This document shows positions 17,273 to 45,353 of a stretch of 47,399 bases of DNA, piece by piece (position 1 is the stretch's first letter; each line of letters starts with the position of its first letter). The stretch is from assembly GCA_016875535.1 (NCBI GenBank), contig VGPF01000015.1, positions 1-47,399 on the forward strand, written 5' to 3'. The notes below the pieces were generated by a model that made no database searches, was not told where the DNA came from, and saw only the letters and a program-made list of their open reading frames with translations. This stretch comes from Chloroflexota bacterium. Lineage in GTDB: Bacteria > Chloroflexota > Dehalococcoidia > SHYB01. The translations under genes and the position numbers were made by a program.

Positions 17273-17941
17273 ATGCACGTCTACCTTCAGGAGCGCGTGG
17301 ACATCGCCCCGGGGCAGGTTGAGGCCTACTACGCCCAGCTGGATAAGGGCGCCCGCCGCCTGAACGATATGATCCCCCGGTGCATGGGGCTCTTCCACAC
17401 GGTGGGCGCCACCGGCAAGTGGCACGAGGTCTACTTCCTCTGGGAGTTCGACGACTGGGCGCAGTACGCCAAGGTGATGGAGCGCTACCCCGGCCCAGGT
17501 GGCATCGTCTCCTGGGCCGACCCGGATTGGAAGCTGCGCACCGGCGGCTCGTCCATCACCATGGAGCCGGGCTTCTTCTGCCCCACGCTCCATGACCTCC
17601 AGGCCCAGGGGCTCCAGGCCCGCGTCTTCATGCACGAATATATCCGCGTCCTCCCCGGCAGGCGCAACGACTACCTGAACCACTACCACGATAATTTCCT
17701 GGAGGCGACCCAGCGTGTAGGGCGCCAGCTGGTCGGCGTCTGGTCCATGATCGGCAACGCCAACGACGTCGTCATCCTCCTGGCGATCAAAGACTGGGCC
17801 GCCTACGCCAAAGGGATGGCCATCCGGAAGGCAGACCCGGTCCGCAAGACCTGGCAAGCCACCTCGTCCAGCTACCGCTCGGACTATGATCTGCGGCTCC
17901 TGACTCCAGGCCCCCTTTCGTTCAACCCCCTCGCCTGGTAA
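17273..17941 (+). CDS. Two-domain NIPSNAP-like protein
   Basis: 222 residues formed of two ferredoxin-like halves. The first has VYLQERVDIAPGQVEAYYAQLD and WHEVYFLWEFDDWAQYAKVMERY. The second has VFMHEYIRVLPGRRNDYLNHYHDNFL and VVILLAIKDWAAYAKGMAIR. The halves repeat one pattern, so it is an internal duplication. A TACCAT -10-like box (17260..17265) lies 7 bases before ATG 17273, suggesting a leaderless start. The last 224 bases are directly repeated at 25792..26015, on the far side of the molybdoenzyme operon. Confidence 0.75.
   Translation: MHVYLQERVDIAPGQVEAYYAQLDKGARRLNDMIPRCMGLFHTVGATGKWHEVYFLWEFDDWAQYAKVMERYPGPGGIVSWADPDWKLRTGGSSITMEPGFFCPTLHDLQAQGLQARVFMHEYIRVLPGRRNDYLNHYHDNFLEATQRVGRQLVGVWSMIGNANDVVILLAIKDWAAYAKGMAIRKADPVRKTWQATSSSYRSDYDLRLLTPGPLSFNPLAW
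17717..17940 (+). repeat. Left 224-bp direct repeat flanking the molybdoenzyme cassette
   Basis: The 3' end of the NIPSNAP-like gene. It aligns without gaps to 25792..26015 (constant offset 8075) with 11 differences by my count. Similarity ends at the stop codon on the right and at GTAGGGCGC on the left. Confidence 0.95.
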
Positions 17942-25780: not shown

Positions 25781-25791
25781 TCCTTTGTCGC

Positions 25792-26015
25792 GTAGGGCGC
25801 GAGCTGGTCGGCGTCTATTCGATGACCGGCAACGCCAACGACGTCGTCATCCTCCTGGCGATCAAAGACTGGGCCGCCTACGCCAAAGGGATGGCCATCC
25901 GGAAGGCAGACCCGGTCCGCAAGACCTGGCAGGCCACCTCGTCCAGCTACCGCTCGGACTATGATCTGCGGCTATTGGCTCCAGGCCCCCTCTCTTTCAA
26001 CCCCCTCGCCTGGTA
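25792..26015 (+). repeat. Right 224-bp direct repeat flanking the molybdoenzyme cassette
   Basis: Gap-free copy of 17717..17940 with 11 differences, four of them clustered near its left end. Both copies end at a stop codon (TAA left, TAG right). Confidence 0.95.
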
Positions 26016-26345: not shown

Positions 26346-26523
26346 TTGAAGCGATACCATTGTCCAGTTTGCCAAAAAAAGCTTAAGAACGGAGAATGGG
26401 CTTAAGTGGCACATGGATCACGGTATCCTCGGGATTCCTCTACCCCCAACGAGGGTTTCAAGTGAGCGTCAAGTGCTGCCGCGCCCTAGGGCCACGACGC
26501 CCCTTTCTACCGAGGTCCCATGA
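26346..26523 (+). pseudogene. C2H2 zinc-finger small protein, frameshifted at an A7 run
   Basis: From TTG 26346 the frame reads LKRYHCPVCQK and meets a run of seven A (26373..26379), after which it soon stops. Reading the run as six A joins it to SLRTENGLKWHMDHGIL, giving an exact C-x2-C-x12-H-x3-H zinc finger. The joined frame continues to a TGA at 26521..26523, overlapping the next gene's ATG as ATGA. Such small zinc-finger proteins occur in Chloroflexota. A sequence indel, a true mutation or transcript slippage on A7 are all possible. No ribosome binding site is obvious. Confidence 0.5.
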
Positions 26524-29500
26524 AAGGGCCCGCAGACTCGACGGAAGGAAGCGAAAGAAATAGTAGGTATGCGGTCAATCAGGGAAAGTTGATGGAGGTA
26601 CCCGAAGAGATGGCCGATAAAGCGCAAGACATCCGTCGCCGCATTACCGCAAACTCCATTGCTGATCTGAGGAGTCGACTTCTAGATTTAACGAATCGGA
26701 ATCGACTAGTTAACTTCAGGTTTAACCAGAAAAGCCGTACTCAGGTTAGGGTTATCGACGAATTACCTAATGTCCTCTTTGACAGAATAATTTCCGAGAA
26801 AGAGCTAATTTTTGCAGCTCTTCCTGAGCCTAGCGAATGGCTTTCAGATGAAAAGTCTGGTGAGTTTGCGTTAGCGCTGGCTGAAGCGCGGCTGACTGAT
26901 GAACAATATTTAAAGGACCGATCCAAGTTAGAAAATGAAGACGAGATCTCAGCCGCGGGGCAGAGGATTGAAAGAATGTTGAGAGATCGAGTTCGCCGCC
27001 GGCTGGGGTGGAAGCCACGTGCGACCCAAGAAACTATGTCACCTCAGGAATATGCAAAAGCAAAAGGCTTAGACCCCTCATGGGATTTACCCCGGCAATC
27101 CGCGGGCGAACAAAAGAAGTCGCATGGCGATAACTATATCCAAACGCTACTCTTTCCAGATTTAATGGAGTCTCGTTTGAGTGCAATTCGTGATGGCGCC
27201 CGCACTGCATTTTCAGAGATGGGCGTCAATGTCTTATTCGCAGTGTTCGGATTTTTGGAGTGGTATGAATCAGAATCAGCCGACAGCCCCTTTTTCTCTC
27301 CGCTACTTTTCCAATCTGTGAAGATAGAGCGAACGCTAGTAAGACAGACCTACCGTTACTCCATAGTTACTACTGGGGACGAAACCGAAATCAATCTGAC
27401 GTTACAGGAGCGTTTGTCCAGGGATTTTGGGTTTGTTCTTCCTGAGCTAGAGGAAGAGGACACCCCTGAATCTTATTTTGCAAAGGTTCAATCCGGCATT
27501 AAAGACCACAAGCGCTGGCGGGTCCGTAGGTTTGTGAATTTCGGTTTATTCTCGTTCGCTCGCCTGGCTATGTATCACGATCTAGATCCAACAAGGTGGC
27601 CTGGACATGACCCATTGGACGCCAAGCCTATTCTAAATGACTTGCTTTCCGGCCACGAGCAAACGGACTCCATCCACCCAGAAGAATATGACGTCGATAA
27701 GCCGAAAATCGAGCGAAAAGTTCCGTTGCTTATCACTGATGCAGACTCATCTCAGTTCTCAGCCATCGTTGACATCATGGAAGGGAGAAACCTTGTAATA
27801 AAAGGCCCTCCTGGGACAGGAAAAAGCCAGACCATAACCAATCTCATTGCGGCTGCCTTGAGCAAAGGCCAGTCCATTCTCTTCTTGGCGGAAAAGATGG
27901 CTGCACTAGATGTCGTAAAGAAAAGGCTAGATGACGCTGGTCTTGGAGACTTCATATTAGAACTGCACTCGACCAAAGCCCATAAGAAGGAAGTCCTCAA
28001 TTCCCTTTCCAAACGCTTGGCAATGTCGGGGCTGCCAGACCCGTCGGAATTGGATAAGGCGCTAAGTGAGTTTCAGAGACTCCGAGAACGGCTTACACGC
28101 TATGCAGACATTATGAACGACAACTGTGGAGATACAGGGGAAAAACTCCACGATTTGTTCTGGGCCGGGTTAAGGGCCAGAGATCTAGCTAAAGCATCGC
28201 TGCTACCAGCCACGTTAGATGTCGCCAAGGTAGGCAAAGCCACCAAGTTAACAGCTTTTGACTTGGATACCCAACGGACGGCGCTGTCTTCGCTGGAACA
28301 CATACTGAGATCATTTCCTCCTGAGTATCAAATCCGATCGCGCCACCCTTGGTCGGGGGTCGATGACAGTGATTTGTCGCCTTTTCAACAGGAACAGTTA
28401 TTAAAAGTTCTTGAGGAGTGGCAATCTACATTAAACGCCCTCCGCGAAGTCAGCGCTATGTTGGAGTCTCAGATAGGTATTACGGGCATTGCAACGATTA
28501 ACTCACTGCATTTTTGGGCTTCACTCCTCGATACCTTACCGAAGGAACAGGGGATTGTTGATTTTAGGGTATTGGGAAATCTGTACGATCCGGAAATAAT
28601 GAAGGAAGTGAAGGTATTTTGCTCCTCGGTCGAGTCCTGGCATGCTCAGACTGAGAATTTGCTTCTTGACGTAGAGTCTGGCAAATACGACTTAGCGTCA
28701 GCAGTAGCTTTTCAGGAATTAGTAACGATACTTAAAGAGATTGAACCTTCGACCGCAAAACTTTCTGATCCGATTAGTAAGATTCAGACATATACACTAA
28801 TCGGGTCACTTCCGAAATACAGAGGAGAATTTCGACATGTTGCCCAAAGCATTGACGATCGGTTGGTGCTAGTCAGAAGGCTGGTCGCACTCACTGATCC
28901 AAATGCGCCTTTACACCCTCAGCGTTTGAGAATCTTGCTTGACGCCCTAAGCATTGCCCGTACGACTGCGCCGGAAGTTCTAAGGAAACGTCTTCCATCG
29001 CTATTTCCTGATCATGTGCGTCGCCATTTGGTCGATGCGGAAACGCAAGCATCGCGTCTAAAAAAGGCACGCATTTATATCTCAGAGAATTTCATTCTAG
29101 ATCCCAGAGTTTCATCGGCTTCATATCGCGAACAAGCCAAAATCATAAAAAATGCTGGCTTGGTGGAACGCCTCTTAGGCAAGCGCTACAAGGCCGCTTG
29201 CCAAACCTGGTTATCAAGCTGCAAGAACCACTCCCCTGTCCAAAGAGAATTGAAATCAAAACATCTTGATGACATAGCCACGTATCTTGAGGAAGTCGCA
29301 ACATTCTCTGAAAGTTCAGAGCTTAAGGCCATTTGCGGAATGGAGTTTCTTGGGATTGATTCTGATTTTGCCTCATTGCTGAAAGTGCAAAGCTTCGCAA
29401 GCGCGGTGAATGAGAAGTTCTCCGGCCAAGAGCCATTTGCAAGGGAAGCTAGGAAATTGCTTCTGGAAGAGTCCCCATCAAAAATTGAAGGCATTCTTTC

Positions 29501-31835
29501 AGAAATAACGGAGGAAACTTGCAAGGAGATCGAATTCCTTTTGAAGGAATACATCTCCGTTGGCTTACCGGCAGGTGAAGGTAGCGATCTACGTTTAGTC
29601 CGAGAAAGCTGTGCTTCCGCTGCAGAAACAATTGACAGAATCTATCGCTCCGCAAAGAAAGCAAAGCTAAAGGACACTACCTCTTTGTCTGCGGTGCCAG
29701 ACATAGCTAAGAGGATCTCAGCCGTTTATGAGCGTAAATCGACGATAGATGCTGTAGCCCCAGAGCTCAGGGCCATCCTAGGGCCCGTCTTCGAGGGCGT
29801 GAAGACAGATATTTGGCTGTTGGCTCGGACAGTCGACCTAGCAACCAAACTCAGGAACCAAGCGTTGGAAAAAGATAAGAAACCTGCGCTCTTCGACGCG
29901 CTAAAACACCTGACTCATGAAAAGGTGCAATTTCTATCCGACACCGTAAGCAAGGCGCTCCAACGCGAGGGGACGATTCGAGAAAAACTCAGTCAAACAG
30001 TTCGAATTGATTACGGGGTCTTTTTCCGAACAAAGGATTTTGAGTTAGATTCGTTGGGGCGCTGCGCAGAAAGGGTATCAGTAGCGATTGACCATTCAGG
30101 ATTGTTGCCTTCATGGGTTGAACACAACCGGCTTCGGCTGCATGTCGAGGAACTAGGGCTGGCATCAATCTTAGAAGCGTACGAGAATGCGGAGACACCG
30201 CTTACTAACAGCACGATGGCGTTCAACTACGTGTTCTATCGATCGATTTTGGCTGAGGCCTACAAGCGCTATCCTGAAATCAATGAGTTTTCCGGTATTC
30301 ACCATGAGAGCCTTCGGAGACGTTTCCAAGAAATTGACAAAAGAATCTCCAAACTTCAAAGGCAAAGGCTGGCTTCGGAGCTTTCTAGGAGGCTCATATC
30401 GCCTGGTGTTGGTTCGGGTCCGAAAAAAGAGTGGACTCAACGAGCTCTAATTCTACATGAGATAGCCAAAGAAAGGCGTCATATACCATTGCGTGAGCTT
30501 ATGAAGCGCGCTGACGATGCGATCCAAGAAATGAAACCATGTTGGATGATGTCACCAGCATCGGTAGCGCAGTTCCTTCAACCTGGCAACATTGAGTTTG
30601 ACTTGGTCGTAATTGATGAAGCTTCGCAGATGCGCCCTGAAGAGGCTATCGGTGGGATTGCTCGTGGCAAACAGCTAGTAGTTGTTGGGGATGAGCAACA
30701 ACTACCACCTACCTCCTTTTTTGAGCGAACTGAAACCACGATTGATGACGATGAGGAAAATGAGGATGCTGTAGAAAACACATCAATTCTTGATCAAGCT
30801 CGTTCAATCTATCAACCTCACAGAGAACTAAGATGGCACTACCGCTCCCGTCATGAAAGTCTCATTGCGTTTTCGAACAAAAACTTCTATAACCAAAGCC
30901 TGACTATTTTCCCAACTGCAATGAAAAGGCACGCGGATTATGGAATCGAATTCAGGAAGGTTGATGGCCTCTACAAAGGCGGAGTCAACTTGCCAGAGGC
31001 GCAGGCGGTGGCTCTAGCGGCGGTTGAATTTATGCATAAGCAAGCGATGTTGCCCGAGGCCGATCGCCGCTCACTTGGTGTTGCAATAATCAATCAGAAA
31101 CAGCGAGATATAGTCGCCGAGGAGATTGACCGCTTGCTGGCCGGAGATACCCAAGCCGAAAAGTACCGAATCTACTGGGAAGGCACACTTGAGCCAATGT
31201 TTGTGAAGAATCTCGAGAACGTACAAGGGGACGAGCGAGATGTCATTTTTATTTCTACGGTCTATGGCCCTGAACAACCTGGTGCACGGGTACATCAGCG
31301 CTTCGGCCCTATCAACTCCGTGGTCGGCCATCGTCGCCTAAATGTCCTATTTACTCGCGCCAAGGAAAAGGTTGTGGTGTTCTCTTCCATGGCTTCGACC
31401 GACATTCTTCCCAATGAGTCTACTCGGCGTGGGGTAGGCATTCTTAAAGACTATTTGGTTTATTCCTCTACAGGTAAATTGGACGCCGGAACGACCTCAG
31501 GCCGAGAGCCAGATACTGACTTTGAGATAGTTGTTGCAAATCGTCTTAGGCAGCAAGGGTTTGATGTGGTGCCCCAGGTCGGTGTAGCTGGATATTTCAT
31601 AGATTTAGGGGTCAAAGATCCAAGAAAGCCTGATGTTTTTCTTCTTGGCATAGAGTGTGACGGTGCCACATACCATTCAGCTAAATCTGCCCGAGACCGT
31701 GATCGCCTAAGGGAAGACGTCCTCCGGCAGAAGAAGTGGAACATATATAGGATTTGGTCAACCGATTGGTTCCGCGACCCTGATCGCGAAACCAGCAAAC
31801 TGCTCGCATACATTAAGCAACTCTTGAGACCGTAA
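26520..31835 (+). CDS. DUF4011-superfamily 1 helicase-Vsr-like nuclease protein (Hhe-like defence protein)
   Basis: 1771 residues. A DUF4011 region (about residues 35-330, starting SIADLRSRLLDLTNRNRLVNF) precedes a split superfamily 1 helicase. Walker A GPPGTGKS is near residue 429. A long helical insertion of about 900 residues separates it from Walker B (VVIDEASQM, about 1361), VVGDEQQLPP (1389), WHYRSRHESLIAFSN (1439) and VLFTRAKEKVVVFSS. The last about 110 residues (PDVFLLGIECDGATYH, then DRLREDVLRQKKW and YRIWSTDWF) form a Vsr/MTES_1575-type endonuclease domain. This matches the DUF4011-helicase-Vsr protein reported as antiphage gene hhe. Codon use is markedly AT-richer than the core genes, indicating transfer. 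Starts at 26592 or 26610 are also possible. Confidence 0.85.
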   Translation: MKGPADSTEGSERNSRYAVNQGKLMEVPEEMADKAQDIRRRITANSIADLRSRLLDLTNRNRLVNFRFNQKSRTQVRVIDELPNVLFDRIISEKELIFAALPEPSEWLSDEKSGEFALALAEARLTDEQYLKDRSKLENEDEISAAGQRIERMLRDRVRRRLGWKPRATQETMSPQEYAKAKGLDPSWDLPRQSAGEQKKSHGDNYIQTLLFPDLMESRLSAIRDGARTAFSEMGVNVLFAVFGFLEWYESESADSPFFSPLLFQSVKIERTLVRQTYRYSIVTTGDETEINLTLQERLSRDFGFVLPELEEEDTPESYFAKVQSGIKDHKRWRVRRFVNFGLFSFARLAMYHDLDPTRWPGHDPLDAKPILNDLLSGHEQTDSIHPEEYDVDKPKIERKVPLLITDADSSQFSAIVDIMEGRNLVIKGPPGTGKSQTITNLIAAALSKGQSILFLAEKMAALDVVKKRLDDAGLGDFILELHSTKAHKKEVLNSLSKRLAMSGLPDPSELDKALSEFQRLRERLTRYADIMNDNCGDTGEKLHDLFWAGLRARDLAKASLLPATLDVAKVGKATKLTAFDLDTQRTALSSLEHILRSFPPEYQIRSRHPWSGVDDSDLSPFQQEQLLKVLEEWQSTLNALREVSAMLESQIGITGIATINSLHFWASLLDTLPKEQGIVDFRVLGNLYDPEIMKEVKVFCSSVESWHAQTENLLLDVESGKYDLASAVAFQELVTILKEIEPSTAKLSDPISKIQTYTLIGSLPKYRGEFRHVAQSIDDRLVLVRRLVALTDPNAPLHPQRLRILLDALSIARTTAPEVLRKRLPSLFPDHVRRHLVDAETQASRLKKARIYISENFILDPRVSSASYREQAKIIKNAGLVERLLGKRYKAACQTWLSSCKNHSPVQRELKSKHLDDIATYLEEVATFSESSELKAICGMEFLGIDSDFASLLKVQSFASAVNEKFSGQEPFAREARKLLLEESPSKIEGILSEITEETCKEIEFLLKEYISVGLPAGEGSDLRLVRESCASAAETIDRIYRSAKKAKLKDTTSLSAVPDIAKRISAVYERKSTIDAVAPELRAILGPVFEGVKTDIWLLARTVDLATKLRNQALEKDKKPALFDALKHLTHEKVQFLSDTVSKALQREGTIREKLSQTVRIDYGVFFRTKDFELDSLGRCAERVSVAIDHSGLLPSWVEHNRLRLHVEELGLASILEAYENAETPLTNSTMAFNYVFYRSILAEAYKRYPEINEFSGIHHESLRRRFQEIDKRISKLQRQRLASELSRRLISPGVGSGPKKEWTQRALILHEIAKERRHIPLRELMKRADDAIQEMKPCWMMSPASVAQFLQPGNIEFDLVVIDEASQMRPEEAIGGIARGKQLVVVGDEQQLPPTSFFERTETTIDDDEENEDAVENTSILDQARSIYQPHRELRWHYRSRHESLIAFSNKNFYNQSLTIFPTAMKRHADYGIEFRKVDGLYKGGVNLPEAQAVALAAVEFMHKQAMLPEADRRSLGVAIINQKQRDIVAEEIDRLLAGDTQAEKYRIYWEGTLEPMFVKNLENVQGDERDVIFISTVYGPEQPGARVHQRFGPINSVVGHRRLNVLFTRAKEKVVVFSSMASTDILPNESTRRGVGILKDYLVYSSTGKLDAGTTSGREPDTDFEIVVANRLRQQGFDVVPQVGVAGYFIDLGVKDPRKPDVFLLGIECDGATYHSAKSARDRDRLREDVLRQKKWNIYRIWSTDWFRDPDRETSKLLAYIKQLLRP

Positions 31836-32029
31836 CTGGCCGTCGTTACAACCCAACGGGCCAACTCGCGGTATGCGGCCTTTTATGATTTAGGAAGAGT
31901 CGGGCAGGAATCAACAGACCTGGAACTCCCAACATGTAACAAATCCCCGTCCAAAAGGAATTGTTTCGGGATAGCGGTGACGCAGATTCGGTCAAGTCAA
32001 CAGGTCTAGGGTGAATCAGAAGGAGCACT

Positions 32030-32722
32030 ATGCCGTTACCGTTAAGTGTAAATTCCGACGAAGAGATCGCTCCGGCTATTCTTTCCGTCATCCGGACGGC
32101 GAAAGGCAACGTCGTCATCGTCTCTCCATACGTTCAACTTTGGGGACACGCCGAGAAAGTGATTCAAAGTGCCGTACATCGTGGAGTTCGCGTCCGATTC
32201 CTCGTGAGGTCTGGGGAACAAGGTGCCAAACCTGAAGAGGTCGCGAAACTGCTTGCGATGAAGGTGGAAGTCCTAGCGGTACCAAACCTCCATGCGAAGG
32301 TCTACTGCGGCGACTCCAAAGTCGTCGTGAGCTCGATGAACTTTTACAATTATTCGGCTAGCAATTCGCATGAGATTGCTCTCGTAGTCTCGGATCCCGA
32401 AAGCCAAGCCGCCGTTCGTGCCTATGTGGACGGACTCCTCCCTTTCGCTGCTCCTTGGGGACAAGCGCGCTCCACAGGGGTAGATGTCTCTCGTCCGGCG
32501 CCGAGGTCCGCTCCCAAAAGTATCGGGATTGGGCTGTGCATCCGATGCAGCGACCGAATCGGCTTTGACCCGAATTACCCCCTTTGTGACGACTGCTATG
32601 ACCTGTGGGCCGAGTATGAAAACCCAGACTATACAGAGAAGTTCTGTCACTCCTGCGGTGCCAACGAGCCCGTGACCTATGCAAAGCCGCTCTGCTACAA
32701 GTGTTTCAAGGCGCTCGGGTAA
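32030..32722 (+). CDS. Phospholipase D-like domain protein with C-terminal zinc-binding region
   Basis: 230 residues. The N-terminal part is a single-HKD PLD-like unit (NLHAKVYCGDSKVVVSSMNFYNYSASNSHEIALV), a fold used by nucleases and lipases that usually dimerise to complete the active site. The last about 65 residues hold four CxxC pairs (CIRCSDRIGF, CDDCYDLW, CHSCGANEP, CYKCFKALG), likely two zinc sites for nucleic acid or protein binding. AAGGAG precedes the ATG. It is 195 bases after the helicase and overlaps the next start as TAATG. Likely a nuclease-type companion of the islet, though such proteins also occur alone. Confidence 0.8.
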   Translation: MPLPLSVNSDEEIAPAILSVIRTAKGNVVIVSPYVQLWGHAEKVIQSAVHRGVRVRFLVRSGEQGAKPEEVAKLLAMKVEVLAVPNLHAKVYCGDSKVVVSSMNFYNYSASNSHEIALVVSDPESQAAVRAYVDGLLPFAAPWGQARSTGVDVSRPAPRSAPKSIGIGLCIRCSDRIGFDPNYPLCDDCYDLWAEYENPDYTEKFCHSCGANEPVTYAKPLCYKCFKALG

Positions 32723-33213
32723 TGCTCGCGTTTGCATACGGGTCAAATATGGACTGGCGTCAGGCAAGACTGCGCTGTCCTTCAGCGCGATTCGTATGTA
32801 TAGCCAAGCTGAAGGATTATTGCCTTGTCTTTCCCCGCAAGAATAAGAATGGTCACGGCGTAGCTGGGATCCAACATGAGACCGGTTCGGACGTCTGGGG
32901 CGTGGTATACGAAATAGCTGACATCGACATTGGTAACCTGGACCGATCTGAGGGATACCAACCCGGCCGAAACCGTAACTCTAATTCTTACGTCAGAGAG
33001 GAGCGTCACGTCTACGCCGATGGCGATGAGAGCAAGCCAATATCCGCATGGCTCTACTTAGCTGTTCCCCAGCAAGACCCTCCCCTACCAAATACTGAAT
33101 ACAAGCGCCTAATTACCGAGGGCGCAAAGTTTTGGCATCTTCCCCTTGACTACATCAATCAGCTTGAACAAATCAAGACTTCTGATCGACCGCTTGAGCT
33201 CTCTGAAACGTAA
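32722..33213 (+). CDS. Gamma-glutamylcyclotransferase-like (AIG2/GGCT fold) protein
   Basis: 163 residues. The N-terminal FAYGSNM is the substrate-binding YGSN loop of the GGCT fold; VWGVVYEI and the DRSEGY motif carry the catalytic glutamate position. Known members cyclise gamma-glutamyl groups. ATG 32722 overlaps the preceding stop as TAATG, so the two are co-translated. The longer frame from 32701 lies within the previous gene and is unlikely. In this setting the substrate is unknown. Confidence 0.82.
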   Translation: MLAFAYGSNMDWRQARLRCPSARFVCIAKLKDYCLVFPRKNKNGHGVAGIQHETGSDVWGVVYEIADIDIGNLDRSEGYQPGRNRNSNSYVREERHVYADGDESKPISAWLYLAVPQQDPPLPNTEYKRLITEGAKFWHLPLDYINQLEQIKTSDRPLELSET

Positions 33214-34180: not shown

Positions 34181-36385
<2,205 letters not shown>

Positions 36386-36398
36386 GGGGGGAGGAAGC

Positions 36399-36641
36399 GT
36401 GAGCAAGGCACACAAGCGAGCCACCGTTAGCTATCTGAGGAGACATTGGTCAGCAGTGCTCAGTGACGTACGCACGCATGATATGGTGGTTGAAGTTGAA
36501 CGGCGTGATGGAACGACTGTTGCTCTTGTCTCGATCGAGCGGCTTCTAGCCCTGCTGCCGAGGGCGCTCTATGCTAAAAAGGCGACCCCTTGCGGTAGGC
36601 AGCCAGGCGCTTCTTGTCCAGACGTTGCGCCTCTCTTATAA
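36399..36641 (+). CDS. Phd/YefM-like antitoxin, orphan
   Basis: 80 residues. The first 50 (ATVSYLRRHWSAVLSDVR, then VVEVERRDGTTVALVSIERLLAL) follow the Phd/YefM antitoxin N-domain pattern, a DNA-binding dimer that represses its own operon. The remaining 30 residues (KKATPCGRQPGASCPD) do not look like a toxin-binding tail. GTG start with GGGGGGAGGAAGC upstream. No toxin gene follows; rplI is next, and the rplI promoter overlaps its last codons. An orphan antitoxin or a decayed module is the likely reading. Confidence 0.55.
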   Translation: MSKAHKRATVSYLRRHWSAVLSDVRTHDMVVEVERRDGTTVALVSIERLLALLPRALYAKKATPCGRQPGASCPDVAPLL

Positions 36642-36642
36642 T
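36614..36642 (+). promoter_or_regulatory. Promoter of the rplI-dnaB operon
   Basis: TTGTCC (36614..36619), a 17-base spacer and TATAAT (36637..36642), 51 bases before rplI. It overlaps the end of the antitoxin-like gene. Confidence 0.65.
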
Positions 36643-36693
36643 AGAGTGCGTCTCTTTCGCTCCCCCTTGTATTGACTTTAGGATGGTGTGTCC

Positions 36694-37251
36694 ATGAAGG
36701 TGCTCTTCCTGCAAGATGTGGTGGGTACCGCCTACGCAGGCGATATCAAGGATGTGAAGCCGGGTTTCGCCCGGAATTTCCTTCTGCCCCAGAAGCTGGC
36801 CGTGCCGGCGACGGCGGACCAGATGAACCGGGTGAAGGGCCTGCAGGCGGCCGCGGCGAAGCGGAAAGATGCCGCCGAGACCGATATGAAGGCGCTGGGA
36901 GAGAAGCTGAACGGCGCGACGATCACGATCAAGGCGCGGGCCGGACGGAACGACCGGCTGTACGGCTCCATCACGAACGCCAACGTGGCTGAAGAGGTGG
37001 GCAAGCTGGCGGGCCGGGTGATTGACCGCCGCCGCCTGGTGATGGATCCGATCAGGACGCTGGGGACCTACACCGTGCCGGTGAAGCTGTTTCCCGGCAT
37101 CGAGCCGAAGGTGAAGGTGGCGGTGGTGGCCTCCGGCGAGGCGGCTGAAGAGCCGACGGCCGAAGAGGTGATCCAGACGCTCGAGGGCGAGAAGAAGCCA
37201 GAGGCGAAGGCGCCGGAAGCCGCCGAGGACAAAGCCGCCGCAGCCAGCTAA
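36694..37251 (+). CDS. rplI: 50S ribosomal protein L9
   Basis: 185 residues. The N-domain MKVLFLQDVVGTAYAGDIKDVKPGFARNFLLPQ is cut here: MKVLFLQDV, then GFARNFLLPQKLA is the bL9 signature. The connecting helix and C-domain follow (LYGSITNANVAEEV, with the family G-S-x-T). An Ala/Glu/Lys-rich tail of about 35 residues extends beyond the usual length. ATG 36694 is chosen over the GTG two codons earlier because bL9 starts with MKV. dnaB follows 9 bases later, the classical rplI-dnaB pair. Confidence 0.95.
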   Translation: MKVLFLQDVVGTAYAGDIKDVKPGFARNFLLPQKLAVPATADQMNRVKGLQAAAAKRKDAAETDMKALGEKLNGATITIKARAGRNDRLYGSITNANVAEEVGKLAGRVIDRRRLVMDPIRTLGTYTVPVKLFPGIEPKVKVAVVASGEAAEEPTAEEVIQTLEGEKKPEAKAPEAAEDKAAAAS

Positions 37252-37260
37252 GGGGATGCC

Positions 37261-38640
37261 GTGTACCCGAACCGATTGCCGCCCCAAGATACGGAGGCGG
37301 AAGATGCGGTCATCGGCTCTCTCCTGATTGACGGCCAGAGTCTTCCCCGAGTCGCGACCCTCGTTAAAGCCGAGGACTTTTCCGCGGACCGCAACCGCAA
37401 TGCCTTTCAGGCATGCGTGGCGCTCTTCGAGCGCAGCGAGCCGATCAACCAGGTGACGCTGACGCACGAGCTCCAGCGCAGGGGCGTACTGGAGTCCATG
37501 GGCGGTCCGGGGTTCATCGCCGGGCTGATCCTGAAGGTTCCCACCTCGGCGCACATCGAGCATTACGCGCGCATCGTCCAGCGGACTTCGATGATGCGCC
37601 GCCTGATCCGGGCTGCCGAGGCGATCGCGGAGGTGGGCTATGAGGACAACCCGGACGTAGACCAGGCGATCAGCAGGGCCGAGGACTATATCTACAAGCT
37701 GCGCCTCGGCGACGGCAGCCGGGACTTTGTCCATATCCGGGACGTGCTTGACACGTATCTTGAAGAGAAGAAGCTGACGGAGCGCCAGCGCCCAGACGCG
37801 CCGACGCAGATCCCGACGAACTATGTGGACCTGGACCGCCTGCTGGGAGGGCTCCAGCGCTCCGACCTGATCATCCTTGCCGCTCGCCCCAGCTTAGGAA
37901 AGAGCAGTCTGGCGCTGAATATGGCGTACAACGCCTCCAAGAAGTCAGGGGCGCATGTGGGCGTGTTCAGCCTGGAGATGGGCAAGGAGCAGCTGGTGGA
38001 CCGCCTGATCTCCAGCATCTCGCGGATCGAGTCCACGCGGCTGCGGCAGTTCCGGCAGGGGGACCACCCGGAGGCGGAGGAGACGGCGCTGCACCAGGCG
38101 ATCGGCGAGCTGGCGGAGCTGCCGATCTGGATAGACGATACGCCGATGCTGACGGTGGTGGAGATGCGGAGCAAGGCGCGCCGCCTGCATATGGAGGCGG
38201 GGCTGGACTTTATCATCGTGGACTACCTGCAGTTGATGCAGGGGGAGCCTTCGCCGGGGTTCAGCACGAACCGCACGCAGGAGTTGAGCGTCATTACGCG
38301 GTCGCTCAAGGGGATCGCCAGGGACCTGGACGTGCCGGTGCTGGCGCTCTCCCAGCTGCGCCGCGCGGTGGAGACGCGCCCGGGCCAGCGGCCGACGCTC
38401 TTTGATCTTCGCGAAAGCGGCAGCATCGAGCAGGACGCGGACGTGGTGATGTTCATCCACCGGGAGGACAAGATCACGGCGGAGGAGGAGTGGGACAAGC
38501 TCCACCCGGACATGCCCTACCCCAAGGGGATCGCGGAGCTGATCGTGGAGAAGCACCGCCACGGGCCGACGGGAAAGGTGCAGCTCTACTTCGACGAGAA
38601 GACAACGACGTTCAGGAACGCATTCGTCCGATCGAGGTAG
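37261..38640 (+). CDS. dnaB: Replicative DNA helicase DnaB
   Basis: 459 residues, intein-free. The N-terminal primase-interaction domain starts RLPPQDTEAEDAVIGSLLIDG. The RecA-like C-domain has the Walker A variant ARPSLGKSSLALNMA, FSLEMGKEQLVDRLI, Walker B FIIVDYLQLMQG, LSQLRRAVETRPGQRPTLFDLRESGSIEQDADVV and the arginine-finger region ELIVEKHRHGPTG. It forms the hexameric fork helicase. The start is GTG 37261. The following two genes encode a DnaD-like protein and a loader-type ATPase, so this is a replication-initiation operon. Confidence 0.97.
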   Translation: MYPNRLPPQDTEAEDAVIGSLLIDGQSLPRVATLVKAEDFSADRNRNAFQACVALFERSEPINQVTLTHELQRRGVLESMGGPGFIAGLILKVPTSAHIEHYARIVQRTSMMRRLIRAAEAIAEVGYEDNPDVDQAISRAEDYIYKLRLGDGSRDFVHIRDVLDTYLEEKKLTERQRPDAPTQIPTNYVDLDRLLGGLQRSDLIILAARPSLGKSSLALNMAYNASKKSGAHVGVFSLEMGKEQLVDRLISSISRIESTRLRQFRQGDHPEAEETALHQAIGELAELPIWIDDTPMLTVVEMRSKARRLHMEAGLDFIIVDYLQLMQGEPSPGFSTNRTQELSVITRSLKGIARDLDVPVLALSQLRRAVETRPGQRPTLFDLRESGSIEQDADVVMFIHREDKITAEEEWDKLHPDMPYPKGIAELIVEKHRHGPTGKVQLYFDEKTTTFRNAFVRSR

Positions 38641-38644
38641 GGGC

Positions 38645-39367
38645 ATGGCCGCCTTTCAGGGCTTCCCGGACTGGTCGAAGAAGACGCCGGTCCCGAACCT
38701 GTTCTTCAGCGGCGTGCTGCCGCTGATAGACGACCTGGTTGAACTGAAGGTGACGTTACATGTATTCTGGCTCCTCGCGTGGAAGAAGGGGCCGTACCGG
38801 TTCGCCACGGCGCAGGAGCTTGCCGGGGACCTGGACCTGGTGTCCGGCCTGGCGCTGGAGGGGAAGGACCCGGGCAAGGAGCTGACGCGAGGGCTGGAGC
38901 GGGCGACGGCGCGGGGAACGCTGCTGCGGCTGGACCTGGAGAAGAACGGCGCGAGCGAACAGTTATATTTCATCAATACGCCGGCTGACCAGCGGGTGAT
39001 CGAGCAGGCGAGGCGGGGGCAGATAGACCTGGGGGCGATGCCGAAGGCGCAGCCGATCGCGGACGCGGCGCCGGTGAAGCGGACGATCTACGAGCTGTAT
39101 GAGCGGAATATCGGGATGCTGACGCCGCTCATCGCGGAGGAGCTGAAGGAGGCGGAGGGGGAGTATCCGCCGGAGTTCATCGAGGAGGCCTTTCGGGAGG
39201 CGGTACGGCTGAATAAGCGGAACTGGCGATATATCCACCGTATCTTGGAGAACTGGCAGGACCAGGGAAGGTTCAGTGGAAAGCATCAAGGACGTCCTGA
39301 AAAGGTACGGGCTGACGAACAGTCCCGGGAATACAAGGGCGGATACGTCACCAAGCGGCGGAGCTAG
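38645..39367 (+). CDS. DnaD domain replication protein
   Basis: 240 residues. A winged-helix-like N-half (IDDLVELKVTLHVFWLLAWKKG) and a DnaD C-terminal domain (YELYERNIGMLTPLIAEELKEA, then YPPEFIEEAFREAVRLNKRNWRYIHRILENW with the Y-I-x-x-I-L-x-x-W motif) are visible. In Firmicutes DnaD remodels origin DNA and recruits DnaB through the loader. Here it begins 4 bases after dnaB and overlaps the loader-like gene by 92 bases, which fits a conserved helicase-loading set. Confidence 0.88.
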   Translation: MAAFQGFPDWSKKTPVPNLFFSGVLPLIDDLVELKVTLHVFWLLAWKKGPYRFATAQELAGDLDLVSGLALEGKDPGKELTRGLERATARGTLLRLDLEKNGASEQLYFINTPADQRVIEQARRGQIDLGAMPKAQPIADAAPVKRTIYELYERNIGMLTPLIAEELKEAEGEYPPEFIEEAFREAVRLNKRNWRYIHRILENWQDQGRFSGKHQGRPEKVRADEQSREYKGGYVTKRRS

Positions 39368-40697
39368 CGGCGCGGAGAGCGATTGCCCCCGCTGCGGCGG
39401 CATCCGCTGGGTGCGGAAGGACGTGCCGCTGAACGACCCGGACTTCGGGAGGCTGTTCCCGTGCCAGTGCCTGCTGACGGAGCAGGAAGCGAGGCGGCCG
39501 GACCGGCTGGCCCGCTATAGCAACCTTGGATCGCTGACGGGCGTGACGTTCGACACCATCGAGGAGCAACAGAAGGCGGCGAAGGAGTCGGGCGGGGCGA
39601 CGCTCTTCCTTTCGACGGCGATGGCGGTGGCGAAGAAGTATGCCGCGAAGCCGGACGGCTGGCTGGTGATCGCGGGGCCGCCGGGGACGGGGAAGACGCG
39701 GCTGGCGGCGGCGATCGCCAACGAGCGGATGCGGCAGGGCGACCCGGCGCTGTTCATCTCGGCGGCGGACCTGCTGGACCACCTGCGCTCCACCTATGCG
39801 CCGAGCAGTTCAGTGGCCTATGACGAGCTGTTTGAGCAGGTGCGGAACGCGCCGCTCCTTATCCTGGACGACCTGGGCGCGGAGAGCCCGACGCCGTGGG
39901 CGCTGGAGAAGCTGAACCAGATCTTGGGCCACCGGTATAACCACCGGCTGGCGACGATCGTGACGACGGACGGCCCGGTGGAGCGGCTGGACGAGCGGAT
40001 CGGCGCGCGGTTGGGCGACCCGAGCATCAGCCAAATCGTGGCGCTGGCGCGGAAGCCGGGTCACAATGCCCACGGCGCGGAGCGCCTGGACATCGTGCTG
40101 CCGAAGCTGACGTTCGAGAGCTTTGACCCCGGAGGGATGGACCTGAAGGGGGCGATGCGCGATAACCTGCAAGAGGCCTACAACCTGGCGAAGGGGTACG
40201 CGCGCAACCCGGACGGCTGGCTGGTGCTGATCGGCGGGAGCGGGTGCGGGAAGACGCACCTGGCGATGGCCATCGCGAACGAGCGCAGGAAGCAGGGCGA
40301 CGATGTGCTGTTCGTGCTGGTGCCCGATTTCCTGGACTTTCTCCGCTCGAACCTTTCGCGGGAGCGGGAGGCCGGGCCAGCCTATGAGATTTTCGATCGA
40401 GTGAAGCGGGCGGGGCTGCTTATCTTGGACGATTTCATGGAGTCGGCCAACTCCCCGTGGGTGCAGGAGCGGATGGACCTGCTGCTGAACTACCGATCGC
40501 TGAACGAGCTGCCGACGGTGATCACCACGCGGATGCCGGCGGACGAGATGGACGAGCGCATCCGGTCGCGGGTGAACGACCCGAGGCTGAGCAACGTCTT
40601 TGAGATTCGCGCGGGGGACTACCGCACGGGCCGGGATAAGCCTTCGCACGCGCCGCAGCGCGGGGGCCAGCAGAAGCCGAGGGGGCGCGCCGGTTAA
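39276..40697 (+). CDS. Tandem AAA+ DnaC/DnaI-like helicase-loader ATPase with N-terminal zinc finger
   Basis: 473 residues. An N-terminal zinc motif (CPRCGG, then CQC) precedes two complete AAA+ modules. The first has GPPGTGKTRLAAAIAN, LLILDDLGAESPTPWALEKLNQIL and DERIGARLGDP. The second has GGSGCGKTHLAMAIAN, LLILDDFMESANSPWVQERMDLLL and DERIRSRVNDP. Both keep Walker A, Walker B and an arginine-finger-like RI-x-[AS]-R. DnaC/DnaI carry one such module. The start is GTG 39276, inside dnaD. It probably loads DnaB, with the two modules arranged in one chain. Confidence 0.88.
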   Translation: MESIKDVLKRYGLTNSPGNTRADTSPSGGASGAESDCPRCGGIRWVRKDVPLNDPDFGRLFPCQCLLTEQEARRPDRLARYSNLGSLTGVTFDTIEEQQKAAKESGGATLFLSTAMAVAKKYAAKPDGWLVIAGPPGTGKTRLAAAIANERMRQGDPALFISAADLLDHLRSTYAPSSSVAYDELFEQVRNAPLLILDDLGAESPTPWALEKLNQILGHRYNHRLATIVTTDGPVERLDERIGARLGDPSISQIVALARKPGHNAHGAERLDIVLPKLTFESFDPGGMDLKGAMRDNLQEAYNLAKGYARNPDGWLVLIGGSGCGKTHLAMAIANERRKQGDDVLFVLVPDFLDFLRSNLSREREAGPAYEIFDRVKRAGLLILDDFMESANSPWVQERMDLLLNYRSLNELPTVITTRMPADEMDERIRSRVNDPRLSNVFEIRAGDYRTGRDKPSHAPQRGGQQKPRGRAG

Positions 40698-40700
40698 CCT

Positions 40701-41024
40701 ATGGCCGCCTATTGCGTCTTCTGCGAGATCATCGCGCGCCACTCGCCCGCCAAGATCCGGTACGAGGATGACGAGGTCATCGTCATTGACAATATCCTGC
40801 AGTGGGCGCCGGTGATGCTGCTGGCGATGCCGAAGAAGCATATGGCCCAGCAGGAGCTGTGGAAGGATATGGGGCCCATCGGGAAGGTGGCGGTGGAGAT
40901 GGGGGAGAAGTATTGCCCCAACGGGTACCGGCTGATCACGAATGTGGGGCATGACGCGATGCAGAGCCAGGATCATGCGCATGTGCATATCCTGGGCGGA
41001 TATTACCTGGGGCATTACGCGTAA
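40701..41024 (+). CDS. HIT family nucleotide hydrolase/transferase
   Basis: 107 residues. The catalytic histidine triad is DHAHVHILGG, with CVFCEII (CxxC zinc ligands) at the N-terminus and MLLAMPKKHMAQQ in the middle. HIT proteins hydrolyse adenosine phosphoramidates and dinucleoside polyphosphates. It starts 3 bases after the loader gene, so it ends the dnaB operon. Confidence 0.93.
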   Translation: MAAYCVFCEIIARHSPAKIRYEDDEVIVIDNILQWAPVMLLAMPKKHMAQQELWKDMGPIGKVAVEMGEKYCPNGYRLITNVGHDAMQSQDHAHVHILGGYYLGHYA

Positions 41025-41167
41025 GGGGAGAGGCCTCACTCATCCCTAGCCCTTTCGCAGCTACAGGGCTAACAGATCTCCAAGGAGAGCGAAGCTCTTG
41101 GGAAAGAGCACAGGCCATCGGAATGGCGCGGACGAGATCATCTTCGCTGGATTCTGGGAGAGGGTAA

Positions 41168-41229
41168 GGGCACTTGAGGTGCCCGATGAGGATGGGCTGG
41201 CCTCTCCGATAGAATCGGGCCGCCCCTAC
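41168..41229. repeat. REP-like intergenic repeat, copy 1
   Basis: GGGCACTTGAGGTGCCCGATGAGGATGGG begins a unit that ends GCCGCCCCTAC. Core elements GCCCGATG-GGATGGG, AATC and CCCCTAC are shared with copy 2. Such GTAGGGG/CCCCTAC palindromic elements are widespread in Chloroflexota intergenic DNA in my recollection. Confidence 0.6.
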
Positions 41230-41315
41230 AAGGGTGCGAGTTGCGAAGGCAACTTGGACGGCGCAGGCCCTTCGTCGCAGCAATTGGCATAGCTGCTTTT
41301 CGGGGTGACAGAGGA

Positions 41316-41389
41316 TAGGGGCGCACAGAGCGCCCGATGGGGATGGGTGAGCCGCGCCAAGAATCAGACAGGCTTGTCTCACCCCTACG
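41316..41389. repeat. REP-like intergenic repeat, copy 2
   Basis: TAGGGGCGCACAGAGCGCCCGATGGGGATGGG opens this unit and CTCACCCCTACG closes it. The ends are inverted (TAGGGG/CCCCTA) and the middle matches copy 1 with the same order of elements. The region 41025..41528 otherwise shows no gene. Confidence 0.6.
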
Positions 41390-41399
41390 CTTGTGCACC

Positions 41400-41430
41400 G
41401 AGAGGCCGCATGTAGTAGCGGCGTCTCTTT
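41400..41430 (+). terminator. Hairpin with short T run before the SDR gene
   Basis: GAGAGGCCGC and GCGGCGTCTC pair with one mismatch around an 8-base loop, followed by TTT. It may end transcripts from the HIT operon, but it is 375 bases after that stop codon. Confidence 0.45.
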
Positions 41431-41528
41431 AGGCGAAGCCCTGGGAAGGCGTCCTCATGCCATGACGTTTGCCTTTTATCGTTGCCTGATGAAGCTGGCA
41501 GACTGCGCCTCAGAGATGGAGGTGCGTT

Positions 41529-42341
41529 ATGCGGCTTACGGGCAAGATCGCGGTTGTGACGGGGGCGGGGGTAGGAGTGGGCAAGGGGATCGAGGAGGAG
41601 CTCGGGAAGGAGGGGGCGGATCTAGCAGTGGCGGACATCAATAGGGAGTGGGGAGAGCGAACGGCGGCGGAGCTGAGGAAGAGCGGCCGCAGAGCTATCT
41701 TTGTGCAGGCGGACGTATCCAACCGCCCGGACATCGAGCGGATGGTGGCGACGTGCGTGCGGGAGCTGGGCGGGCTAGATATCCTGGTGAACAACGTTGG
41801 CATCTTGCGGGCGACGCCGTTCATTGACCTGACGGATGAGACGTGGGACCTGGTGATGAACACGAACCTGAAGTCGGCGTTCATGGGGTCGCAGGCGGCG
41901 GCGCGGTACTGGATCGCGAACAAGCGACAGGGGCGCATCATCAACATCAGCTCCACGGATGAGCAGCTGCCGTATCCGTTCATCGTGGCGTACTGCTCCT
42001 CCAAGGCGGGGATGAACATGCTGACGAAGACGACGGCGCTGGCGCTGGCGGAGCACGGCATCAACGTGAACAGCATCGCGCCGGGGCTGGTGGAGTCTGA
42101 GATGACGCGGAAGCAGATGGGCGACCCGGCGTATATGGCGGTTCTGCCCGCGCGGGTGGCGCTGGCGAGGATGGGGAGGCCTTCGGAGATCGGGCGGGCG
42201 GCGGTCTTTTTCGCCTCAAGCGATTCGGACTATGTGACGGGGACGACACTCCTAGTGGACGGCGGGCATGTCATCACGCCTGCCTGGCAGGTGATCACGA
42301 AGTTCCGGGAACACCTGAGGGCGGCAGGCCAGCCCAAGTAA
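41529..42341 (+). CDS. SDR family NAD(P)-dependent oxidoreductase
   Basis: 270 residues of the classical short-chain dehydrogenase type. The cofactor motif is TGAGVGVGKG, with DI at the end of strand two, NNVG as the NNAG variant, the catalytic Ser in NISSTDEQ, and YCSSK as YxxxK. The C-terminus closes with GTTLLVDGGHVI. FabG-like ketoreductases and many alcohol dehydrogenases share this layout, so the substrate is open. GGAGGTG precedes the ATG. It is convergent with the aconitase gene. Confidence 0.92.
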   Translation: MRLTGKIAVVTGAGVGVGKGIEEELGKEGADLAVADINREWGERTAAELRKSGRRAIFVQADVSNRPDIERMVATCVRELGGLDILVNNVGILRATPFIDLTDETWDLVMNTNLKSAFMGSQAAARYWIANKRQGRIINISSTDEQLPYPFIVAYCSSKAGMNMLTKTTALALAEHGINVNSIAPGLVESEMTRKQMGDPAYMAVLPARVALARMGRPSEIGRAAVFFASSDSDYVTGTTLLVDGGHVITPAWQVITKFREHLRAAGQPK

Positions 42342-42362
42342 CGGCTCTCTTCTAGGCAAAGG

Positions 42363-42397
42363 AAAGCCCCTCCCGTGGTTCACGGGAGGGGCTTTTT
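42363..42397. terminator. Bidirectional terminator between SDR and aconitase genes
   Basis: AAAGCCCCTCCCGTG-GTT-CACGGGAGGGGCTTT with T tracts outward in both directions: a 15-pair perfect stem serving both convergent genes. Confidence 0.92.
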
Positions 42398-42421
42398 CGT
42401 TTCGAGAACCGGCGTTTCTGC

Positions 42422-44692
42422 CTACGCCTGTTTGGTGAGGGTGTTGAGGGCAGAGCCGGCCTTGAACCACCCGATCTGTTCCTGGTTCAAGGTGTGCTTC
42501 AGCTCGATCCTGTCTTCCTTGCCATCGGCGTGGTGGATGACGGCTTGGAGGTTTTTGCCGGGAGCGAGGTCTTTGAGGCCGAGGATGCTGATCTTGTCCG
42601 TCTCCTGCACCTTCTCGTAGTCGGCGCTGTTGGCGAAGGTGAGAGGCAGGATGCCCTGCTTCTTGAGGTTGGATTCGTGGATGCGGGCGAAGCTGCGGGT
42701 GATGACCGCGCCGCAGCCGAGGAAGCGCGGCGACATGGCGGCGTGCTCGCGGCTGGAGCCTTCGCCGTAGTTGGTATCGCCAACGACGACCCATTTGAGG
42801 CCTGCGGCCTTATAGGCGCGCGCGACCTTGGGGTAGGGCTCCCGGGCGCTGGTGAGCTGATTGAGGCCTTTGCCAGCCTCGCCAGTGAAGGCGTTGATGG
42901 CGCCGAGGAAGGCGTTATCGCTGATCTTATCGAGGTGGCCGCGGTAGCGGAGCCAGACGCCTGCGGGGGAAATATGGTCGGTGGTGCATTTCCCCTTGGC
43001 CTTGACGAGAACGGGGGCCTTTTCTATGTCCTTGCCGTTCCAGCGGTCGAAGGGCTTGAGGATCTGGAGGCGGTCGCTGGTGGGGGAGACGGCGATCTGA
43101 ACGCTACGGCCATCTTTGGGGGGAGCGAGGTAGCCGTTGAGATCGCCCACGAAGCCCTTGGCGGGGACTTCCGGGGCCTGCTTGGGCGGCGCGAGGAGGA
43201 ACTCCTTGCCATCGGCGCCTTTGAGCTTGTCCTTGAGGGGATTGAAGGAGAGGCGGCCAGCGAGGCCATAGGCGACGACGATCTCCGGGCTGGCGATGAA
43301 GGAGGCGGTGGCGGCGTTGCCATCATTGCGGGCGGGGAAGTTGCGGTTGAAGGAGTTGATGATGCTGTTCTTTTCGCCGGGCTTGATGTCGTCGCGCTTC
43401 CACTGGCCGATGCAGGGGCCGCAGGCGTTGGCGAGGACGGTTGCGCCGATGGCTTCCAGGGACTTCATCTGGCCGTCGCGCTCGATGGTGGCGCGGACGG
43501 ACTCGGAGCCGGGGGTGACGAGGAGGGGCGCGGCGACCTTGGCGCCGTGGGCCTTGGCCTGCTCGGCCACATCGGCGGCGCGGGAGATGTCCTCATAGGA
43601 GGAGTTGGTGCAGGAGCCGACGAGGGCAGAGGTGAGCCTATCCGGGTAGCCCTCCTTGGCAACGGCCTCAGCAATCTTGGAGACGGGACGCGCCAGGTCG
43701 GGCGTGTGAGGGCCGACGATGTGGGGCTCGAGCTTGGAGAGGTCAATCTCGATGACGCGGGCGAAGAACTTGTTCGGGTTCGACTCCACCTCGGGATCGG
43801 CCTTGAGGAGGTCCTTATGGGCGTTGGCGATATCGGCCAGGTCGCCGCGGCGGGTGGAACGGAGGTAGGTCTCCATGCGCCTATCGTACGGGAAGAGGGA
43901 GCAGGTGGCTCCAATCTCCGCGCCCATGTTGCAGATGGTGGCCTTGCCGGTGCAGGAGATGCTCTCCACGCCGGGGCCGAAGTATTCGACGATGCGGTTG
44001 GTGCCGCCGGCGACGGTGAGGACGCCTGCGAGGTAGAGAATGACATCTTTGGGGGCGGTCCAGCCGCTCATCTTGCCGGTGAGCTTGACGCCGATGACCT
44101 CCGGGTTGAGGACTTCCCAGGGGAAGCCGGCCATGACATCCACGGCATCGGCGCCGCCGACGCCGCAGGCCACCATGCCGAGGCCGCCGGCGTTGGGGGT
44201 ATGGGAGTCCGTGCCGATCATCATGCCGCCGGGGAAGGCGTAGTTCTCCAGGACGACCTGGTGGATGATGCCGGAGCCCGGTTTCCAGAAGCCGATACCG
44301 TAGCGCTTGGCGACGCTCTCCAGGAACTTGTAGACCTCGTCATTCTCCGCAGCAGCAACGGCGAGGTCCTTGGCGGCGTTAACGCGGGCTTGGATGAGGT
44401 GATCGCAGTGGACGGTGGAGGGAACGGCGACGGAGTCCTTGTTGGCCTGAGAGAACTGGAGGAGGGCCATCTGCGCCGTGGCGTCCTGCATGGCGACGCG
44501 ATCGGGCTTGAGGAGGAGGTAGCTCTTGCCGGGAACCATCTCCTGGCCCTGCGGGTCATCCAGGTGGCCGTAGACGACCTTTTCAGCAAAGGTCATTGGA
44601 CGGTTGAGGCGCTTGCGTACGATGGCGAGGTTGGTCTGGGAGCGCTTGTAGCTCCCCTTGACCATATCCGGGGTGGATTCGATGGTGACCAT
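42422..44692 (-). CDS. acn: Aconitate hydratase
   Basis: 756 residues of the mitochondrial-type (AcnM) aconitase: [17 protein letters not shown] opens, and [26 protein letters not shown] is the substrate-binding region. The [4Fe-4S] ligands are Cys in [10 protein letters not shown] and the CGPC pair in [11 protein letters not shown]. The SRNFPARND-type [11 protein letters not shown] and the swivel-domain [15 protein letters not shown] follow. It isomerises citrate to isocitrate in the TCA cycle. It is the last gene of a leftward gltX-tRNA-ferredoxin-acn run, though an intergenic structure separates it from ferredoxin. Confidence 0.97.
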
Positions 44693-44724
44693 GGGTGACC
44701 TGCTTTCTCTTGCCGGGACAAAGA

Positions 44725-44789
44725 GAGACCGCTACGTCGCTTCCCTATCGCGCGTGCGCGCCGGATGAAGGAAGGTCGGCAGCGGTCTC
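44725..44789 (-). repeat. Inverted repeat in the aconitase leader
   Basis: GAGACCGCT (44725..44733) and AGCGGTCTC (44781..44789) form a 9-pair stem with a 47-base loop that contains its own short GC-rich palindrome. On the minus strand it lies between the ferredoxin stop and the aconitase ATG. It could be a terminator-like or leader regulatory structure. Confidence 0.4.
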
Positions 44790-44815
44790 CTCTGCTCGTG
44801 ACTCGGGGTGTTGGG

Positions 44816-45085
44816 CTAGACCTTGCGGTTACTGTAGAAGTCTTTATTGGTCTGGATGTAGTTCTTCCAGTTGGCGGGAACGGCATCAGCCTCGAAGATG
44901 GCGTTGACGGGGCAGACGGGCTCGCATGCGGCGCAGTCTATGCACTCGTCCGGGTTGATGAAGAGCTGTTTGGCCGCGGCGAAATCGGGCTCGCTATCGC
45001 GCGGGTGGATGCAGTCCACCGGGCAGACCTCCACACAGGAGAGGTCTTTAACGTTGACGCAGGGCTCGGTGATGACGTAGGCCAT
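44816..45085 (-). CDS. Seven-iron-type ferredoxin
   Basis: 89 residues. The N-terminal cluster motif is ITEPCVNVKDLSCVEVCPVDCIH (C-x7-C-x3-C-P), which in this family holds a [3Fe-4S] centre. The second, CIDCAACEPVCP, holds [4Fe-4S]. The C-terminus (IFEADAVPANWKNYIQTN) is typical of the FdxA-like group. The long open frame extends into the tRNA genes, but ATG 45085 starts the conserved MAYVITEPC and is the true start. A small soluble electron carrier. Confidence 0.92.
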   Translation of the reverse strand: MAYVITEPCVNVKDLSCVEVCPVDCIHPRDSEPDFAAAKQLFINPDECIDCAACEPVCPVNAIFEADAVPANWKNYIQTNKDFYSNRKV

Positions 45086-45198
45086 CGGAACGGGACCTCC
45101 ATAAGCTACCGGCGCACTCCCGCGCGCCGTCGTAAGATGCTCACAACCCGACGATTGTACCAGGTGCGACTGCCGCTGTCGCCTCCGGTGTATTGTTT

Positions 45199-45276
45199 CT
45201 GGTAGCGCATACGGGATTCGAACCCGTGATTTTCGCCTTGAGAGGGCGACGTCCTTGGCCGCTAGACGAATGCGCC
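45199..45276 (-). tRNA. tRNA-Glu (anticodon CTC)
   Basis: The minus strand folds into a cloverleaf of 78 bases: acceptor GGCGCAT/ATGCGCT (one G-U pair), anticodon stem TCGCC/GGCGA with loop CTCTCAA and anticodon CTC, T-loop TTCGAAT, discriminator A, encoded CCA. Confidence 0.95.
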
Positions 45277-45279
45277 ATG

Positions 45280-45353
45280 TGGCTGGGGATCCTGGATTCG
45301 AACCAGGGCTCGCAGATCCAGAGTCTGCTGTCCTACCGCTAGACGAATCCCCA
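45280..45353 (-). tRNA. tRNA-Gln (anticodon CTG)
   Basis: The minus strand folds into a 74-base cloverleaf: acceptor TGGGGAT/ATCCCCA, anticodon stem GCAGA/TCTGC with loop CTCTGGA and anticodon CTG, T-loop TTCGAAT, discriminator G, encoded CCA. It is 3 bases from tRNA-Glu, so both are one transcript. Confidence 0.95.

What the first reader, a model, noticed from the sequence alone, without database searches (positions are those of the whole stretch)
26520..33213. AT-rich defence-like islet around an Hhe-type helicase-nuclease
A DUF4011-helicase-Vsr-like giant protein, a PLD-like protein with zinc tail and a GGCT-like protein form an operon-like run with codon use unlike the flanks. Hhe is known as a single-gene antiphage system, so the two companions may define an extended version.
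Basis: partly seen in the sequence, partly recalled or inferred. Interest (0 to 1): 0.6.

Follow-up and report, generated by a model that had tools for sequence, protein, structure and literature searches.

The report
Hhe-like helicase-nuclease gene, chance neighbours
A Chloroflexota bacterium carries one large helicase-nuclease gene related to the known single-gene phage-defence protein Hhe; the two small genes after it are independent genes that most likely just sit next to it, so there is no sign of a new extended system.

Summary
In detail: an AT-rich patch (47-54% GC against about 60-67% in the flanks) carries a 1771-aa DUF4011 / SF1-helicase / Vsr-like (MTES_1575) protein, a PLD-like protein with an eight-cysteine tail, and a GGCT-like protein, all on the + strand. 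The interpretation that the two small genes extend Hhe is not supported. In 393 genomes of the class, helicase and PLD-zinc relatives coincide as often as chance predicts (2 of 34 against 2.6 expected, window excluded), over 600 kb apart. Helicase and GGCT coincide below expectation, never on one contig; PLD and GGCT are never adjacent elsewhere. Across 53 helicase loci no partner recurs. A second, insertion-sequence-cut copy of the helicase in the same genome (96% aa identity) matches the window only to 31,961, before the PLD gene starts. The helicase scores below NCBI's cut-offs for Hhe and ProA, nearer Hhe, and aligns with plasmid Hhe over 97% of its length (34%). It lacks the 84-199 aa C-terminal tail of its relatives. 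Best reading: a stand-alone Hhe-like defence gene in a phylum outside Hhe's reported range (Proteobacteria), beside unrelated genes. Ordinary, with minor interest.

The parts
26520..31835 (+). Hhe-like DUF4011-SF1 helicase-Vsr/MTES_1575 REase, 1771 aa, intact frame
26676..27416 (+). DUF4011 domain (residues 53-299)
   Evidence: PF13195, E 1.1e-34
27804..27827 (+). Walker A motif GPPGTGKS
   Evidence: read from the translation
30792..31388 (+). C-terminal SF1 helicase domain (AAA_12, residues 1425-1623)
   Evidence: PF13087
31521..31811 (+). MTES_1575 Vsr-like endonuclease domain (residues 1668-1764) with the conserved GIECDG..YH / RDRDRLR motif; the protein ends directly after it
   Evidence: PF18741, E 3.5e-35; alignment
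32030..32722 (+). PLD-like (single HKD) protein with eight-cysteine C-terminal tail; stand-alone family in the class, probably an unrelated neighbour
   Evidence: PF13091; H88, K90, S102, N104 in 24 of 24 sequences, eight tail Cys in 20-24 of 24
32722..33213 (+). GGCT/AIG2-like protein (alternative start GTG 32701); common in the class, probably an unrelated neighbour
   Evidence: PF06094; relatives in 139 of 393 genomes

Best explanation
The helicase is a stand-alone, Hhe-like phage-defence protein, probably acquired horizontally. By domain content it most likely loads on and unwinds foreign or replicating DNA with its SF1 motor and cuts it with the C-terminal Vsr-like nuclease, so that one protein is both sensor and effector. 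The PLD-zinc gene and the GGCT gene are independent genes that happen to lie downstream. Shown here: domain content, intact motifs, purifying selection on the C-terminal part, absence of conserved partners, presence of a second copy. Inferred: defence function (from homology to Hhe), horizontal origin (from composition) and the unwinding-and-cutting mechanism.
For: Domains and motifs intact. Hhe is the best NCBIfam model, 1452 bits over the whole protein, and the protein aligns with annotated plasmid Hhe over residues 46-1768 at 34%. In 393 class genomes: helicase 35, PLD-zinc 31, GGCT 139. With the window genome left out, helicase and PLD coincide in 2 (expected 2.6, Fisher p = 1), helicase and GGCT in 8 (expected 12), PLD and GGCT in 13 (expected 10.6, p = 0.33), and no such pair is adjacent. 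No PLD-zinc or GGCT near helicase loci, and no neighbour family recurs in more than 6 of 53 helicase loci. No helicase or GGCT near PLD loci. The second copy at G000:C14:97-744 matches the window only to 31961. Its divergence is dN 0.021, dS 0.309, so the part compared was kept by selection.
Against: PLD and GGCT share the low-GC patch and the strand, and overlap by 1 nt. PLD-like and helicase proteins do pair in DISARM, Mokosh and Dpd, and the PLD protein hits DrmC weakly. In the nearest full-length relative (L004, 47%) the contig ends about 200 bp after the gene, so its downstream side cannot be seen. The genus and family are thinly sampled (3 other genomes in the search). Defence activity was not tested.
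Confidence: 0.8

Rival explanations
1. An extended Hhe system: helicase, PLD-zinc nuclease and GGCT protein act together.
For: Same strand, shared low GC, PLD/GGCT 1-nt overlap; PLD-helicase pairing is known in DISARM and Mokosh, and the PLD protein matches DrmC and MkoB/MkoC weakly.
Against: No co-occurrence and no adjacency in 393 class genomes; no recurrent partner in 53 loci; the second copy's homology stops before the PLD gene.
Confidence: 0.05
2. PLD-zinc and GGCT form their own two-gene unit unrelated to the helicase, and arrived separately.
For: 1-nt stop/start overlap suggests translational coupling; their GC differs from the helicase.
Against: In 13 other class genomes holding both they are never adjacent, and no neighbour recurs beside PLD-zinc genes in more than 3 loci.
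Confidence: 0.1
3. The helicase is a decaying remnant: it has lost the C-terminal tail (DUF3320/winged-helix in ProA-type relatives) and no longer functions.
For: All 11 aligned relatives carry 84-199 residues after the REase; this one carries none. The other copy in the genome is cut by an insertion sequence.
Against: Full-length open frame with conserved motifs. Both copies end at the same stop, and the compared C-terminal part has dN/dS about 0.07, so the tail-less form was under constraint while the copies diverged.
Confidence: 0.12

Closest known systems
Hhe (Gao_Hhe; NCBIfam NF042953, PADLOC PDLC02194), DUF4011-helicase-Vsr single-gene defence
   Same: Same domain order; aligns over residues 46-1768; 34% identity to annotated Hhe on Klebsiella plasmids.
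   Different: Below the equivalog cut-off (1452 of 2000); lacks the last 114 or so model positions; host is Chloroflexota, whereas Gao_Hhe was reported only in Proteobacteria (PMC9090908).
ProA (NCBIfam NF058533) and PADLOC candidate PDC-S37
   Same: DUF4011, SF1 helicase, MTES_1575 REase; PDC-S37 is the best PADLOC model (1251 bits).
   Different: 1086 bits against a ProA cut-off of 1500; the two ProA-level relatives scanned (L183, L074) carry a DUF3320 tail that is missing here.
DISARM DrmC / Mokosh MkoC PLD nucleases
   Same: Single PLD domain; DrmC is the best PADLOC hit for the PLD protein (E 7e-12).
   Different: 34.8 bits against the DrmC_I cut-off of 133; no DISARM or Mokosh partners here; the zinc tail is not part of the match.

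Membership tests
Hhe | DUF4011 + SF1 helicase + Vsr-like/MTES_1575 REase in one protein | tested here: met
Hhe | Score above the NCBIfam equivalog cut-off (2000 bits) | tested here: not met
   1452 bits; so Hhe-like, not filed as Hhe
Hhe | Full-length alignment including the C-terminus | tested here: not met
   ends at model position 1683 of 1797; tail absent
Hhe | Works as a single gene, no required partners | tested here: inconclusive
   No partner by genome context; function not assayed
Hhe | Anti-phage activity | not testable with these tools
   needs a plaque assay
ProA | Score above the NCBIfam equivalog cut-off (1500 bits) | tested here: not met
   1086 bits
ProA | C-terminal DUF3320/winged-helix tail | tested here: not met
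   no DUF3320; no domain after the REase
DISARM (DrmC) | DrmC score above cut-off and DISARM partners next to it | tested here: not met
   34.8 of 133 bits; neighbours are a Hhe-like helicase and GGCT

The most novel reading that the evidence does not exclude
In this lineage the helicase lost its C-terminal tail and the adjacent PLD-zinc nuclease, with GGCT, took over that role, making a lineage-specific three-gene variant.
Probability: 0.04. Interest if true: 0.4.

Novelty: new member of a known kind. Interest (0 to 1): 0.15.

Why it matters
It shows that DUF4011-helicase-Vsr proteins closer to Hhe than to ProA exist in Chloroflexota, outside the Proteobacteria in which Hhe was reported, and gives a tail-less natural variant that could test whether the C-terminal region is needed. 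It also removes a false lead: the PLD-zinc and GGCT genes are not general Hhe partners.

Tried and rejected
(1) Extended system: rejected by co-occurrence and neighbourhood tests. (2) Empty-site comparison: same-family genome G355 has the flanking oxidoreductase operon and purL on different contigs, G122 has purL but no mobB match, and the same-genus genome G367 (70% complete) has only a weak purL hit and no mobB match, so the insertion could not be shown directly. (3) The genome-contig scan with the single protein returned one relative only; whole-genome searches replaced it. (4) Promoter and terminator scan: no more sites than shuffled sequence, uninformative. (5) Literature: no paper found with a Hhe mechanism. 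(6) Structure prediction was not run; domain families and conserved motifs were enough for the question.

Full report
What is there. The window is a whole contig (C15) of a 2.5-Mb, 86-contig genome. Its closest full-length helicase relative in named genomes is from a Dehalococcoidia bacterium, so the host is probably in that class of Chloroflexota (inference). The patch at 26.5-33.2 kb is AT-rich (GC 0.47-0.54 in 1-kb bins) with low GC3. It holds a 1771-aa helicase-nuclease (26520-31835), a 230-aa PLD-like protein (32030-32722) and a 163-aa GGCT-like protein (32722-33213) on the + strand. The flanks are an ordinary molybdopterin oxidoreductase operon upstream and purL downstream.

The helicase. 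Pfam gives DUF4011, AAA_11/AAA_12 and a C-terminal MTES_1575 nuclease of Vsr fold (fold named in PMC3710099); Walker A GPPGTGKS is intact. NCBIfam places it nearest Hhe (1452 bits, cut-off 2000), then ProA (1086, cut-off 1500); PADLOC puts the candidate PDC-S37 (1251) ahead of Hhe (1015). The nearest full-length relative, L004 at 47%, scores the same way, so the two lie nearer Hhe than ProA. DefenseFinder reported Gao_Hhe only from Proteobacteria (PMC9090908). In an alignment of 12 proteins every relative has 84-199 residues after the nuclease; this protein has none. In ProA-level relatives that tail holds DUF3320, described as winged helices (PMC3710099).

A second copy. G000:C14:97-744 encodes the last 216 residues at 96% identity. 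The contig starts with a repeat end, GTGACCTGCCCCCCAAAAACTAG, found 12 times in the genome with up to two mismatches, mostly close to contig ends: most simply an insertion sequence that cuts this copy. No 5' part was found in the assembly. DNA identity with the window runs to 31961, past the shared stop but not into the PLD gene at 32030. The compared coding part differs mostly at third positions (dN 0.021, dS 0.309), so it was under purifying selection, stop position included.

Are the small genes partners? In 301 genomes of the phylum, full-length PLD-zinc relatives occur in genomes without the helicase. In 393 genomes of the class: helicase in 35, PLD-zinc in 31, GGCT in 139. Leaving out the window genome, helicase and PLD coincide in 2 of 34 (2.6 expected, p = 1) and lie over 600 kb apart in both; helicase and GGCT in 8 (12 expected), never on the same contig; PLD and GGCT in 13 (10.6 expected, p = 0.33), never adjacent. 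With flanks of up to about 8 kb (less where contigs end), helicase loci contain no PLD-zinc or GGCT gene and no recurrent partner: the largest other cluster is 6 of 53 loci. PLD loci contain no helicase or GGCT. An annotated plasmid Hhe lies next to two DUF262 genes and insertion sequences, with no PLD or GGCT listed (that gene table is incomplete).

The PLD protein. The HKD residues H88 and K90 and the downstream S102 and N104 are conserved in 24 of 24 sequences, and the eight tail cysteines in 20-24 of 24. It is a coherent stand-alone family, a single-HKD nuclease-like protein with a probable double zinc ribbon (inference). Its DrmC match is far below cut-off.

Mechanism. By domain content and homology to Hhe, an SF1 motor translocates on foreign DNA and the fused Vsr-like nuclease cuts it. 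This is inference; no activity was tested, and no mechanism paper for Hhe was found in the library.

Conclusion and limits. A Hhe-like stand-alone gene with chance neighbours. The genus and family are thinly sampled, and the best relative's downstream side is cut by its contig end, so a very young, lineage-specific association cannot be fully excluded.

Noticed in passing
window 17714-17940 and 25789-26015: A 227-bp direct repeat (94.7%) of the 3' end of a NIPSNAP-like gene flanks a type-II DMSO-reductase-family operon (molybdopterin subunit, Fe-S subunit, delta, EB_dh, MobB); it looks like a duplication or insertion scar around the operon.
   Followed up: partly
G000:C14:1-97 and 11 other places: An insertion-sequence-like end (TGACCTGCCCCCCAAAAACTAG) recurs 12 times in the genome, mostly close to contig ends, and appears to break the assembly; one copy cuts the second helicase gene.
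   Followed up: partly
window 35001-47000: GC skew is steadily positive (about 0.07-0.22) after being near zero or slightly negative upstream, with a DnaB-like gene at 37261 and an IstB/DnaA-domain gene at 39276; cause not examined.
   Followed up: no
window 39276-40697: One protein matches IstB in its first half and DnaA in its second, with a roughly 130-bp internal repeat (39628-39755 and 40186-40313), possibly a fused tandem pair of helicase loaders.
   Followed up: no
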